36,122 nucleotides of DNA, taken from positions 1 through 36,122 of the forward strand of contig JAEUSW010000323.1 of the NCBI GenBank assembly GCA_016788285.1, given 5' to 3'. How positions within the stretch are numbered: the stretch's first letter is position 1; every line of letters starts with the position of its first letter. Shown in pieces: positions 1 to 17,226 of the stretch. The notes under the pieces are model-generated. The model saw only the letters and a program-made list of their open reading frames with translations, was not told the DNA's origin and did not search any database. The translations under genes and the position numbers were made by a program. This DNA is from Flavobacteriales bacterium (GTDB taxonomy: Bacteria > Bacteroidota > Bacteroidia > Flavobacteriales_F > PHOS-HE28).

Positions 1-93
1 GGCAAGATCTGGATACTTGCCTACGAGGTGATCACTGAAGGGAACCGAGGGAAGTGGCAGGTGAACCGTCCGCAGGAGAGGCTGAAGACCTAT

Positions 94-234
94 TCCCCTA
101 TTGGGACCTGCTGCTTCCTAGGTGTTCTGGGCTCAAATAGAAAACGAGGCTGCGGGCCTGTTAAAGTTCTGAAGCGTCGAACACCTGTTCTCGGCCCCTC
201 CAGGATCAATGGTCCAACCACAAAGAAAACGAAC
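94..234 (+). ncRNA. possible bridge (seek) RNA region of the IS110 element
   Basis: This is the non-coding stretch between the candidate left end and the transposase start. In IS110 elements the non-coding end encodes a bridge RNA that pairs with both target and donor DNA to guide recombination. In this element only about ten bases follow the transposase stop before the inverted repeat, so the upstream side is the only place large enough for such an RNA. One segment (94-102) is complementary to the right end at 1238-1246. Another (203-209) is complementary to 1248-1254, but a 7-base match is near chance level. No fold has been computed, so the exact RNA boundaries are unknown. Confidence 0.3.
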
Positions 235-1236
235 ATGAGGACTATCGGTATCGATGTAAGCAAGGCACACCTGGATGTGGCATTGCTTGACCAGCAAGAG
301 GGCTTCTTGGATGAAGTGAGCATCACCAACGAGCCGGCCGCACTGATCAAGTTGATACGTCGGTGGCTCAAGAATGAACGATGTCGACCTGACACTATCG
401 TGTGTATAGAACCTACCGGCCACTACAGCTTCTCGGCGATCAAGGCCTTACTGGAGGAAGGTGTACCAGTATGGTTGGCCCATCCGGCCGATATCCAAAG
501 CAGCATTGGCTTGCAACGGGGAAAGAGCGACCAAGTGGACGCACGTCGCATAGCACAATACGCCTTGCGGTTCCGCGACAAGGCCCAGTTGCTCGATGAT
601 CACTTCCTGCGGTTGCAGGAATTGAAAGACCTGCTCTCCCTACGCGAACAGTACGTGCGACAACGGGCTGCCATAAGGGTTCAGCAAGGCGACTATCTCA
701 ACGCCATACAGGGTCGGGCCAAGACCTGCTTCAAACGCGCTGCCCGTGAACTTACCGCTTCGTTGGAGCGCGCCATCCAAAGCGTCGAGAAGAGCATTGA
801 GGAGTTCATGGCAAGCGTGCCGGAGCTCAATGCGAAACGTGAGCTAGCGATGACCGTCACGGGCGTAGGCCCGGTACTGGCCAGTGAACTACTGGCCATC
901 ACCCGTGGCTTCACCCGGTTCGATGACCACAGGCAGCTGGTCTGCTATGCAGGACTGGCCCCTTATCCATATCGCTCCGGCACGAGCGTGCATGGCCCAA
1001 CAGCCGTGTCACATAAAGCCAATAAGCGCATCAAGACACTTGTCCACATGGCTGCTCTCAACGCCATCCGCTTGCCAGGCGACCTCCAGAGCTACTATCG
1101 GCGAAAGCGCGAACAAGGGAAACCGGCCATGAGCGCACTGAATGCCGTCCGCGCAAAGATCATCCGACACCTGTGGGCCGTCATGACATCCGGTCAACCC
1201 TACACACCCTTTAAAGCCGACTTGCAAATGCCATAG
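235..1236 (+). CDS. IS110-family transposase (DEDD recombinase)
   Basis: The 333-residue protein has the two IS110 domains. The N-terminal RuvC-like DEDD domain opens with GIDVSK and carries D7, E59 (IEPTG), D99 and D102 (KSDQVDARR). The C-terminal transposase_20 domain carries VTGVGP at about 208-213 and the serine motif SGTSV at 248-252, expected to supply the nucleophile used together with the DEDD site. A helical, coiled-coil-like linker lies between them (about 120-200). The frame stays open upstream to position 28, but ATG 235 is chosen because family members begin directly at the MxxIGIDVSK strand and the upstream stretch has no protein-like character. All catalytic residues and the full length are present, so the gene looks intact and possibly active. 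It runs away from the window start and converges on the S74 surface-protein gene. Confidence 0.93.
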   Translation: MRTIGIDVSKAHLDVALLDQQEGFLDEVSITNEPAALIKLIRRWLKNERCRPDTIVCIEPTGHYSFSAIKALLEEGVPVWLAHPADIQSSIGLQRGKSDQVDARRIAQYALRFRDKAQLLDDHFLRLQELKDLLSLREQYVRQRAAIRVQQGDYLNAIQGRAKTCFKRAARELTASLERAIQSVEKSIEEFMASVPELNAKRELAMTVTGVGPVLASELLAITRGFTRFDDHRQLVCYAGLAPYPYRSGTSVHGPTAVSHKANKRIKTLVHMAALNAIRLPGDLQSYYRRKREQGKPAMSALNAVRAKIIRHLWAVMTSGQPYTPFKADLQMP

Positions 1237-1270
1237 AAATAGGGGACTTGATCCATGTGCACATGCATCA

Positions 1271-1300
1271 AGGGCCGCTCCGCGAACGTGAAGCGGCCCT
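1271..1300 (-). terminator. hairpin downstream of the S74 protein gene
   Basis: A 9-bp perfect stem (1271-1279 with 1292-1300) encloses a 12-base loop about 20 bases past the stop codon of the minus-strand gene at 1322. No clear T-run follows on the minus strand, so it may be a weak or factor-assisted terminator. It touches the imperfect palindrome at 1247-1272. Confidence 0.55.
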
Positions 1301-1321
1301 CGACCATTGCTGTGCGCGCGC

Positions 1322-3475
1322 CTACCGCGCCACCTTCACGGCCTTCTTCACCACGAAGCTGTCGTTGAGGAACAGCGTGCAGTGGTAAGTGCCCGGCGCA
1401 AGATCGGTGGTGGTCCAGTCGTGGGTGTACGTGCCCACCTCGCGCACGGCCTCCTCGAGCACCTCCAGACGCTTGCCGCTGGCATCGCTGACCTCCAGGC
1501 GTGTGCGGCCCGGTGCGGCCACCGTGTAGCGCAGCTGCGTGAGGTCCGCCACCGGGTTGGGCAGGATGAACAGGTCGGTGCGCAGCGCTTCGCTTGCCCC
1601 TGCCCCTGCCCCAGCTCCTGAACCCATGGTGCGCTGGTCAGTTCTTTCGTTGGCCGTGCAGCAGTTCGCGAGGTCCTGCTGCATCGCGGCGAGTTGTTGT
1701 TGGAGCTGTGCGACCTGGTCTTGCAGAGCGGCCATCTGTGCGCCTTGTTCGTTGCTGGCCCCGACCAGCACCGGGATCAGCCCGCCGTAGTTCACGGCCT
1801 TGAAGGTCACCGCCGGTTGAAGGACGTTCCCCAACGAGTCGACCTCCGCGGGCTGGGTCACCGTTCGGACCAGACCGGGCAGTACGGCCTGAAGATCGCC
1901 GGCCATGATGCCATTGTGGGTGCCTTCCGGAAGACCCAGTTGGGGATAGTCCGCCGTCCTGAACTGGTAGCGCTTCGGTTGCAACTGGGCAAGAATGTCC
2001 GAAGCGTCGGTCAGATCCGTGACATTTTGCTTCAGCATCGCATCCGAGCTCTGCCACACACCGGCCGAATGAAAACCCGCGCCGACGAAATAGGCCGCCC
2101 AGCGATTGGGATAGTTCGTGTGCTGCGTGCTGCCATATACGCCGGCCAATAGGACTGCGCTGCTCGAGTCGCTCGGGGTGGTGTACACATAACCATGCAC
2201 GCCGAAACCCTTGGTGGTGGGCAGCCCGCTGCTGTTGCCTTTTACACCATACGCATTGGTGGCCTGCCCGGATCCGTTCTCCGTGTCCCCGTAGACACCC
2301 ATGTTGTCCGTGGTGGACTTGCCGGTGTTGAGCCAGCCGCGACCGTACACACCGTAGTTCTTCACGGCCCCGTCGTAGGCCCGCGTATGTATGCCGTAGT
2401 GCTCGTTGCCCGAGCTCTGGCCACTGGCGGTCTGCACCACGCACTTCAGCCCGATGTTCTCGGTGCCGTTGTTATCACCTTTCGTGTACACCTGGATCCC
2501 CAGGTCGTTGGACGAGGTATGGTTGCGCAGCACATCGAGCTTGGCCTCGGGCGAGCTGTCACCGATCCCTACGTTCTCGGCATCGTCGGGGCATGCACCG
2601 TTGGCCGCACCCACGGCTGTGTAGACGTGGTTCGGTGATGAGCCGTTCATCTGCCATTCGCAGTTGTCAGCAGCCACTGGTAGTGAACTCACTGCACGCC
2701 AATGCAAGCGCCCATCCGCATCCGTCACCACCAGGCGGTCCAACTGGCCATCCTCATAGTCCGGCACCAGCCTGCGGATCATGATCGTGCGGTCCAGCAC
2801 GTCCAGCCGCTCATCGGGCGTGGCGCTCTGGCCGAACCAATCGCCGATGCCCACGAACACCTCCGAACCGCTGTCGTGCGGGTAGAGCTGCATGGCCTCC
2901 AAGCCCTCCATGGAGTTGCTTCCCGTGGGGCTGGAACTGCTGTACTCCGAGGTGAAGATGAAGCGCATGCGATCGCTGAGCCAGGTGCCCGGGTTATCGC
3001 TCCACTGCACAATGGCATCGGTGTAGTCGTTCAGCTCACCGGATTCAGGCTCCTCGGGGTTGTCGTAGGTGTACTTCTGCCCGATGTACATCTGGTCGCT
3101 GTTGCCCGTGAAGGTGACGCCGTTGCGCATCCACGGCCGGTAGCCGATGCCCTGGAACCCGTTGGCACCGGGTTCTGCCAGATGCAGCCGACTGAAGGGG
3201 CCCGGCCCATTGTCCCAGAAATAGCTGCTGGGGCTGATACCCACGAAGCCCGATGTGGGGAGCAGACTGAAGCTGCCGATGTCGTAGTTGTCTTCCTGGT
3301 TCACCACCAACCGGACCTTGTCGTAGGTCCGAAGAGCAAGCCGCTCGGCATCGGTGGTCCCCAGGAAGTCAAGCGTGTAGTCGGTTGTTCCATTCCCCGA
3401 AAGGAGCCAAGGAGTCTGGGCCTCGGCGGCAATGGAACCAAGTATCAACGTTCCTGCGAAAACTGTCGTTCTCAT
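1322..3475 (-). CDS. T9SS-sorted surface protein with peptidase S74 chaperone domain
   Basis: A 717-residue secreted protein. A signal peptide (MRTTVFAG to AEAQ) is predicted to cleave before Gln20. The N-terminal half resembles tail-fibre-type beta proteins and includes repeated GVYG/GVHG segments around residues 380-460. A peptidase S74 intramolecular chaperone domain starts at about 476: S477, D478 and K482 reproduce the SDxxxK spacing of the self-cleaving endosialidase/tail-spike family. It is followed by a Gln-rich coiled coil (about 578-604), a Gly-Ala low-complexity linker and a type A T9SS sorting domain beginning at LPNPVADL near 638. The start at 3475 gives a standard signal peptide; an ATG at 3508 overlaps the upstream stop by four bases and would add eleven basic residues, so it cannot be excluded. 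It probably forms an operon with the gene at 3505-4464. In the family, S74 domains trimerise, help fold beta-helical fibres and then cut themselves off. Confidence 0.85.
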   Translation of the reverse strand: MRTTVFAGTLILGSIAAEAQTPWLLSGNGTTDYTLDFLGTTDAERLALRTYDKVRLVVNQEDNYDIGSFSLLPTSGFVGISPSSYFWDNGPGPFSRLHLAEPGANGFQGIGYRPWMRNGVTFTGNSDQMYIGQKYTYDNPEEPESGELNDYTDAIVQWSDNPGTWLSDRMRFIFTSEYSSSSPTGSNSMEGLEAMQLYPHDSGSEVFVGIGDWFGQSATPDERLDVLDRTIMIRRLVPDYEDGQLDRLVVTDADGRLHWRAVSSLPVAADNCEWQMNGSSPNHVYTAVGAANGACPDDAENVGIGDSSPEAKLDVLRNHTSSNDLGIQVYTKGDNNGTENIGLKCVVQTASGQSSGNEHYGIHTRAYDGAVKNYGVYGRGWLNTGKSTTDNMGVYGDTENGSGQATNAYGVKGNSSGLPTTKGFGVHGYVYTTPSDSSSAVLLAGVYGSTQHTNYPNRWAAYFVGAGFHSAGVWQSSDAMLKQNVTDLTDASDILAQLQPKRYQFRTADYPQLGLPEGTHNGIMAGDLQAVLPGLVRTVTQPAEVDSLGNVLQPAVTFKAVNYGGLIPVLVGASNEQGAQMAALQDQVAQLQQQLAAMQQDLANCCTANERTDQRTMGSGAGAGAGASEALRTDLFILPNPVADLTQLRYTVAAPGRTRLEVSDASGKRLEVLEEAVREVGTYTHDWTTTDLAPGTYHCTLFLNDSFVVKKAVKVAR

Positions 3476-3504
3476 GGTCTTGGGTTTGCGCCCAAGGCCC
3501 CTTC

Positions 3505-4464
3505 TCACTTGATGAACCTGACGACCCTTCGCTGCCCACCCATGTACGCGATGACCGTGTACAGGCCTTGCGCCAAGCTGCTTGGAACCAGTACGCCACC
3601 CTCTCGGCTCTCGGATACGCGGGGCTGCCAGACCAACCGGCCGGCCGAATCAATGACCAACACGGAGCGCAAGGGTTCGCTGCTGATCCATCGGATCATC
3701 TCGGACGTCGCAGATAGCTCTGCATACCCTGCCAGCTGCTCCTCAACCGCCTCAGCATACAGCGGTACCACGGCCACCGCATCAATGTAGTAGTAGGCCT
3801 TGGGCTGTGGGAACAGGGGGGGCAGGTCGATGCCGTTCACTTGTGGGTCGTCCTGGAAGGTGCCGATCACCAGCCAGCGCTCGTTGCCTTGCGCCACTAG
3901 GGTGTCCGCCAGTTCGACCCAGTTCGTATCCAGCAGATAGGCGTTGTTCGGATCACGGAGCTGTATCTGCGGGCTGAACGGTAGCACCGTGGTGTGCGGT
4001 TCGTGAATACTATCCGGGCCGAAGTAGACACCGATGTGATCGATCGCGCGTCGGTGCCCTTTTGGTCGTGCACAATACAGGCTCACCCGGTAGCTTCTTC
4101 CGGCCTCGAGCCCGGCGATCAGCTTGGTGCTCAGGTAATCACGCGAGCTGCCAGTGCTGTCTGTCCCATACCAATGAAATCCGCCGGCCAATCGGCTCCC
4201 GTCGTATGCGGTCCTGTACCCCTTTGCCTGTATTCCAGTGTCCGTAGAGTCCATGAAGGTGCCACAAGGATCCACAGTATCGCAGTCGAAGATGTCCGGT
4301 GTGGCCAGGTTGGCGCTATACCAGCCGACCGCCTCCTCGTAAGGCGGTTGATACAGGGAGCAATGGGTGGTGTCCTCGAAGCTCGGGTTGGGCACGAGGT
4401 TCTGGGCCGTCGCCATCGCGGCGAGGGCCAGGTTCATCAAGTGAAGAAGGAATGCTCTGGGCAT
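3505..4464 (-). CDS. T9SS-sorted secreted protein, LVPNPSFE-type
   Basis: A 319-residue protein of unknown specific function. The signal peptide (MPRAFLLHL to ATAQ) is predicted to cleave before Gln21 and is followed at once by NLVPNPSFE. That opening is common in Bacteroidota secreted proteins with a galactose-binding-like (jelly-roll) domain. The middle region (about 90-225) has the strand pattern of such a domain, with lines such as YRVSLYCARP and WLVIGTF. The last ~75 residues form a T9SS sorting domain ending in VVRFIK, although the canonical PNP box is not evident. The start is supported by a rare Shine-Dalgarno match 7 bases upstream. The gene sits directly upstream of the S74 protein and is probably co-transcribed with it, so the two may act on the same surface structure; that is inference from position. 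Confidence 0.75.
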   Translation of the reverse strand: MPRAFLLHLMNLALAAMATAQNLVPNPSFEDTTHCSLYQPPYEEAVGWYSANLATPDIFDCDTVDPCGTFMDSTDTGIQAKGYRTAYDGSRLAGGFHWYGTDSTGSSRDYLSTKLIAGLEAGRSYRVSLYCARPKGHRRAIDHIGVYFGPDSIHEPHTTVLPFSPQIQLRDPNNAYLLDTNWVELADTLVAQGNERWLVIGTFQDDPQVNGIDLPPLFPQPKAYYYIDAVAVVPLYAEAVEEQLAGYAELSATSEMIRWISSEPLRSVLVIDSAGRLVWQPRVSESREGGVLVPSSLAQGLYTVIAYMGGQRRVVRFIK

Positions 4465-17111: not shown

Positions 17112-17226
17112 CGGGGTCGAACGGACGACGGATCGGTCCGGGGGCACACCACTGATCGTCAGGCGCTTGTAAGCTTCCTCTCGGATCCCAAGGATCGGGG
17201 CGAAATGCAGGCTTGCTGACCAACCG

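What the first reader, a model, noticed from the sequence alone, without database searches (positions are those of the whole stretch)
94..1254. IS110 element with an unusual 9-bp inverted repeat and possible guide-RNA matches to its own right end
The non-coding left part contains 94-102, complementary to 1238-1246, and 203-209, complementary to 1248-1254. These two right-end segments are adjacent, separated by position 1247, and a CT dinucleotide (1247-1248), the kind of core used by IS110 recombinases, lies at their border. A 9-base match is unlikely by chance in this space, whereas the 7-base match is near chance. Inverted repeats are an IS1111 trait, but the guide-RNA space here is upstream of the transposase as in IS110 proper, so the element mixes features of both subgroups.
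Basis: partly seen in the sequence, partly recalled or inferred. Interest (0 to 1): 0.55.

Follow-up and report, generated by a model that had tools for sequence, protein, structure and literature searches.

The report
IS110 jumping gene with guide RNA
This is a bacterial jumping gene (IS110 type) that carries a guide RNA telling it where to insert; the odd "inverted repeat" is really that RNA pairing with the junction between the element and the neighbouring DNA, and its relatives suggest a slightly different joining rule from the best-studied example.

Summary
The 9-base match is real but is not an inverted repeat. Window 94-102 lies in the target-binding loop of a bridge RNA (covariance-model hit 36-205, E 4e-30, from a model built on relatives only) and pairs with 1238-1246, which straddles the element's right edge: four element bases (AATA, 1238-1241) plus five flank bases (GGGGA, 1242-1246). 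This is the 2+2+5 pattern reported for IS621 after strand exchange (handshake, core, right target). Across 26 related Bacteroidota elements, the junction 9-mer matches the element's own RNA at 8.1/9 against 6.4 when permuted (0 of 20,000); the left 9-mer gives 7.7 against 6.0 (0 of 20,000).

The element is about 1,256 bp; the contig start removes its first 15 bp. It sits at CAGGA^GGGG in a dispersed double-hairpin repeat. The second (7-base) match lies in flank and looks like chance. CT at 1247-1248 is outside the element and is not the core.

It is IS110 proper, not an IS1111 mixture. Unlike IS621's two-base CT core, only one core base is shared between the junctions in this clade (A here); position 8 matches no better than chance, and the RNA there pairs with donor rather than target.

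The parts
1..1241 (+). IS110-type element (left 15 bp, CTTTAGGATCGCAG[C/T], lie outside the window in contigs C159/C153); full length about 1256 bp
   Evidence: left junctions in L003/L004/L002, right junction by comparison with empty-site-like repeats
36..205 (+). bridge RNA (two-loop structured ncRNA)
   Evidence: covariance model R1 built from 8 relatives without this sequence: 113.8 bits, E 4.1e-30
69..77 (+). left target guide (LTG) TCCGCAGGA; 7 of 9 to the left flank CGCGCAGGA (C153) and 7 of 9 to TGCTCAGGA (C159)
94..98 (+). right target guide (RTG) TCCCC, pairs with flank 1242-1246 GGGGA
99..102 (+). core-binding and handshake nucleotides TATT, pair with element end 1238-1241 AATA
   Evidence: scheme from PMC11208158
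137..143 (+). left donor guide (LDG) ATAGAAA, same as element right end 1233-1239
   Evidence: 25 of 26 elements have an exact 7-base copy of their own right end in the RNA
162..166 (+). right donor guide (RDG) TAAAG, reverse complement of element left end CTTTA; 167-170 TTCT face target AGGA (one G-U)
   Evidence: sequence; positions
235..1236 (+). IS110 recombinase, 333 aa; PF01548 + PF02371; aligned nearly full length to IS621 and ISCro4 structures
1233..1241 (+). right end / left donor ATAGAAATA; A1241 is the shared core base, inferred cut between 1241 and 1242
1242..1246 (+). right target half-site GGGGA in flanking repeat DNA (not element)
   Evidence: C58 repeat CAGGAGGGGGCTTGATCCATGTGC

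Best explanation
A complete (contig-truncated) IS110-type insertion sequence of a Bacteroidota draft genome; its closest named relatives are in Flavobacteriales MAGs. Its upstream RNA is a bridge RNA with a target loop (LTG 69-77, RTG 94-98) and a donor loop (LDG 137-143, RDG 162-166). The recombinase, loaded with this RNA, recognises CGCAGGA^GGGG in a dispersed double-hairpin repeat and the abutted ends of the circular element (ATAGAAATA^CTTTA), cuts both after the A, and exchanges strands. Shown here: anatomy, fold, guide-flank match, ends, repeat target. Inferred from IS621/ISEc21: circle, cleavage, strand exchange. In this clade only the base next to the cut is common to donor and target (A here); position 8 behaves as part of the handshake.
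For: Recombinase domains and alignment to IS621 and ISCro4. Bridge RNA found by a model that never saw it; 17 of 40 pairs have compensatory changes, 0 of 500 shuffles as high. In 26 elements: junction 9-mer 8.12/9 vs 6.36 permuted, 13 of 26 perfect; LT9 7.73 vs 6.03, 8 of 26 perfect; each 0 of 20,000 permutations. At fixed guide positions: RT10-14 4.15/5 vs 1.78, LT9 7.65 vs 2.97. Donor guide LD1-7 exact in 25 of 26. Core position 9 same at both junctions in 24 of 26 (permuted mean 12.4, 0 of 20,000); position 8 in 5 of 26 (permuted 4.7). RTG placed without the donor bases: position 8 pairs with donor in 15 of 16 and with target in 2 of 16 (10 of 26 set aside). Same left end at repeat sites in C153, C159 and the 72%-identical C274.
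Against: No expression, circle or transposition data. The window's own left junction is not in one contig with it; its left flank is C159 or C153. C274's LTG fits its own left flank poorly (5 of 9). Two of 26 elements (L071, L074) have G left and A right at position 9. The element set is one clade of Bacteroidota relatives, so the 26 are not independent: core A, C and G need only two changes on the tree.
Confidence: 0.93

Rival explanations
1. The 94-102/1238-1246 match is a terminal or subterminal inverted repeat, making the element an IS110/IS1111 intermediate.
For: It is an exact 9-base reverse complement between the left non-coding part and the right end.
Against: Only four bases are inside the element; the flank half changes with the flank in other elements and the RNA changes with it. 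No inverted repeat of the ends themselves beyond chance. The non-coding region and RNA are upstream as in IS110 proper.
Confidence: 0.03
2. The match is a chance or compositional coincidence.
For: Any 9-mer match to 30 bases round the right end arises in 1.1% of shuffles; L091's RNA also holds TCCCCTATT, where it is no guide to its own junction.
Against: 13 of 26 elements have the same perfect 9-mer relation at the same place in the RNA, mostly with different letters; 0 of 20,000 permutations.
Confidence: 0.01
3. The core is the usual two-base core and the right boundary is misplaced by one or more bases, so that the single-base core is an artefact of where I cut.
For: Boundaries of the relatives were set by motif; A-rich ends (ATAA) leave the register open in the AATAAG group; IS621 has a CT core.
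Against: The element's own boundary rests on repeat copies (CAGGAGGGG) where only A can be shared; the same register gives 24 of 26 identity at position 9 and chance at position 8.
Confidence: 0.15

Closest known systems
IS621 (IS110 group; PDB 8WT6-8WT9)
   Same: RuvC-like DEDD plus PF02371 recombinase aligned over residues 3-324; upstream bridge RNA with target loop then donor loop; LTG/RTG/LDG/RDG; handshake pairing; palindromic repeat target
   Different: A rather than T next to the cut, and no shared base at position 8; RDG contiguous here instead of interrupted; Bacteroidota-type promoter halves at the ends
ISCro4 (PDB 9T56)
   Same: closest solved recombinase by sequence (E 1.7e-23)
   Different: only the chain sequence was compared; its RNA and core were not examined
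ISEc21 (IS110 family, seekRNA paper PMC11187229)
   Same: upstream RNA, bottom-strand match 5' of top-strand match, no target duplication (passages read)
   Different: linear target inside IS3-family genes rather than an intergenic hairpin repeat
IS1111 group
   Same: same recombinase superfamily and RNA guidance
   Different: RNA downstream of the gene and long subterminal inverted repeats; neither is seen here

Membership tests
IS110 family | DEDD RuvC-like domain (PF01548) and PF02371 with conserved Ser | tested here: met
   PF01548 5.9e-22, PF02371 3.4e-20; residues aligned to the IS621 catalytic D, E, D, D are invariant in A1, as are Ser 248, 251 and 259
IS110 group (not IS1111) | long non-coding region and RNA upstream of the gene, short right end | tested here: met
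   249 nt before the ATG, 5 nt from the stop codon to the cut
IS110 group bridge RNA | two internal loops carrying target and donor guides | tested here: met
IS110 group | specific target, no long target duplication | tested here: met
   CAGGA^GGGG in a double-hairpin repeat; at most one shared base
IS621-like orthologues | CT core dinucleotide at both ends | tested here: not met
   left GA, right TA in this element; only A shared
IS110 family | circular intermediate with abutted ends | not testable with these tools
   no reads of the circle; the ends carry promoter halves
IS1111 group | subterminal inverted repeats of 7-17 bp | tested here: not met
   longest exact inverted match of the 40-nt ends is 5 nt, 647 of 1000 shuffles as long
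IS1111 group | RNA in the right end, downstream of the gene | tested here: not met
   only 5 nt between stop and cut; RNA at 36-205

The most novel reading that the evidence does not exclude
Bacteroidota IS110 elements form a class of bridge recombinases with a one-base core and a three-base handshake: donor and target need only share the base next to the cut, position 8 pairs only after strand exchange, and the base used (A, G or C here, T in IS621) goes with the residue after the catalytic Glu (EPTG, EATG, E[HNQD]TG). That would make strand exchange more one-way than in IS621 and give a protein handle on core choice.
Probability: 0.4. Interest if true: 0.7.

Novelty: new variant of a known kind. 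Interest (0 to 1): 0.42.

Why it matters
Bridge recombinases are being developed for programmable DNA insertion, inversion and excision, and a shared two-base core limits which sites can be joined. A natural clade in which only one base is shared, and in which that base differs between subclades, would widen the choice of sites and point to testable residues. The case also shows that guides can be read from a single inserted copy: the apparent inverted repeat is the guide paired with its product junction.

Tried and rejected
Inverted-repeat reading: rejected. CT 1247-1248 as core: rejected, it is in flank. Second 7-mer as a guide: the analogous flank positions 16-22 gave 5.42/7 against 5.16 permuted (218 of 20,000), a weak excess that I cannot explain and that may be composition; the sequence GGATCAA is unique to this RNA among the 26. 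Rfam: no match above gathering score in window 1-1700. The single-protein scan of genome contigs found nothing; the alignment scan worked. An early idea that donor and target cores simply differ was replaced by the one-base core once the register was set from C- and G-core relatives.

Rows dropped. Of the 80 loci I read 33; 23 of these are in the 26-row set, with C188, C274 and C21 as the other three. L092 was dropped before counting (same RNA as L091), as was C188_C159left (same element as C188 with the other left flank). L070, L077, L078, L081, L088, L093, L095 and L103 had no clear pair of ends by my patterns, and L094 was skipped by a script limit. L097, L071, L072 and L074 are the same elements as L013, L012, L021 and L027. 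The other 47 loci were not examined.

Literature. I saw passages only of PMC11208160 and PMC11208158, PMC11187229 and PMC7366714. I did not see the figures, so published cores of other IS110 elements may include one like this. Searches listed no paper on Bacteroidota IS110 bridge RNAs; no bioRxiv preprints are held and most subscription papers are missing.

Full report
What is there. The window is contig C188 (36,122 bases, whole) of a 360-contig draft genome. An open frame 235-1236 encodes a 333-aa recombinase with the IS110 domains PF01548 and PF02371, aligned nearly full length to the solved IS621 and ISCro4 recombinases. The contig begins inside the element. The same first 141 bases end contig C159 and begin contig C153 (reverse), and a 72%-identical complete relative lies in C274. 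In all three the element starts after ...CAGGA with CTTTAGGATCG, so 15 bp are missing from the window and the element measures 1,256 bp.

Ends and target. The flanks are a dispersed double-hairpin repeat. Uninterrupted copies read CAGGAGGGG; C58 has CTGCTCAGGAGGGGGCTTGATCCATGTGC where the window has ...AATA|GGGGACTTGATCCATGTGC. The right edge is therefore after A1241. The right flank fits the second hairpin's outer side, as does C159's left flank, so C159 is the more likely left neighbour of the window copy and C153 a further insertion whose right end is not assembled (exact right ends were found only in C188 and C274). This assignment is an inference.

The RNA. Ten upstream regions fold into one structure: an outer stem, a target-loop stem and a donor-loop stem; 96.7% of cells paired, 17 of 40 pairs with compensatory change, 0 of 500 shuffles reaching the covariation score. 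A covariance model built from eight relatives, without C188 and C274, hits window 36-205 at E 4.1e-30; the only other window match up to E 1 is at chance level (E 1 at 17187).

The guides. For 26 elements I set the two edges by end motifs and compared flanks with each element's own RNA. The right-junction 9-mer (positions 6-14) had a mean best match of 8.12 of 9, against 6.36 when flanks were permuted among elements; the left 9-mer 7.73 against 6.03; both 0 of 20,000. With guides at their fixed places the contrast is larger: LT9 7.65 against 2.97, RT10-14 4.15 of 5 against 1.78. The right end's seven bases LD1-7 occur exactly in 25 of 26 RNAs. For the window element the junction match is perfect: 94-98 with flank 1246-1242, 99-100 with 1241-1240, 101-102 with 1239-1238. 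That is the pattern described for IS621 after strand exchange: right target, incoming donor core, handshake positions (PMC11208158, passages).

The core. In IS621 the CT core is the same in donor and target. Here, comparing the last two bases before the cut at left and right junctions, position 9 agrees in 24 of 26 elements (permuted mean 12.4; 0 of 20,000) and position 8 in 5 of 26 (permuted mean 4.7). The target loop's base facing position 8 pairs with the donor in 26 of 26 and with the target in 5 of 26 (12 with wobble). Because that placement used donor bases, I repeated it with flank bases alone: of 16 unambiguous cases 15 pair with donor and 2 with target at position 8; 10 of 26 were set aside. 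The right-end base at position 9 is A in nine elements including this one, G in one, C in sixteen. On a tree of the recombinases this needs two changes only, so the correlation with the residue after the catalytic Glu (P with A, A with G, H/N/Q/D with C) rests on two events and is a hypothesis.

Promoter at the circle. The abutted ends carry halves of the promoter described for Bacteroides (TTTG near -33 and TAnnTTTG near -7; PMC7366714, passage; the same passage says that the -33 motif was not identified in Flavobacterium johnsoniae): TTTG or CTTG in the right end of most, 20 bases, then TAnnTTTG-like in the left end. In 23 of 26 elements the best site falls in the same register; mean 8.65 of 10 against 6.44 for shuffles (highest mean of 500 shuffles 7.04); with the real left flank in place of the right end the fixed-register mean falls from 8.42 to 5.88. 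This element's own score is 7. A promoter rebuilt across the circle junction is known for the family (PMC11208160, passage); the Bacteroidota form of the motif is my observation, untested.

Against this reading. Nothing here is experimental. C274's left guide fits its own flank at 5 of 9 and fits the other arm of the hairpin better by eye, so guides drift or insertions tolerate mismatch. Two elements break the position-9 rule by a purine transition. The relatives form one clade.

Noticed in passing
G000:C15:20907-21083 (-), L156: Bridge RNA and left end without a transposase, apparently joined to an inverted right end: a decayed element at a different target.
   Followed up: partly
L172, L173, L174, L175, L180 (genomes G026, G008, G013, G024): Bridge-RNA remnants in genomes with no recombinase match at E 0.001; L180 sits among several copies of another dispersed repeat (CCCTAAATCGCGCAAGTCTTCGGC) that its guides seem to fit.
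   Followed up: partly
element ends, 26 elements: Right and left ends together form a Bacteroidota-type promoter in the same register in 23 of 26.
   Followed up: yes
recombinase residues 59-64 (window 409-426): Residue after the catalytic Glu goes with the core base: P with A, A with G, H/N/Q/D with C; only two events on the tree.
   Followed up: partly
L083, right junction: The right end is followed directly by CTTTAG, like a left end: a possible tandem or relic circle junction.
   Followed up: no
C58, C153, C159, C274, C301: A double-hairpin repeat of about 150 bp with AGGA^GGGG at the hairpin edges; both the C188 and the C274 elements sit in it.
   Followed up: partly
1254-1300 and C58, C263, C235, C115: The region after the element shares a short hairpin-like stretch and downstream sequence with other loci, beside the end of a gene (1322-3508, minus strand).
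   Followed up: no
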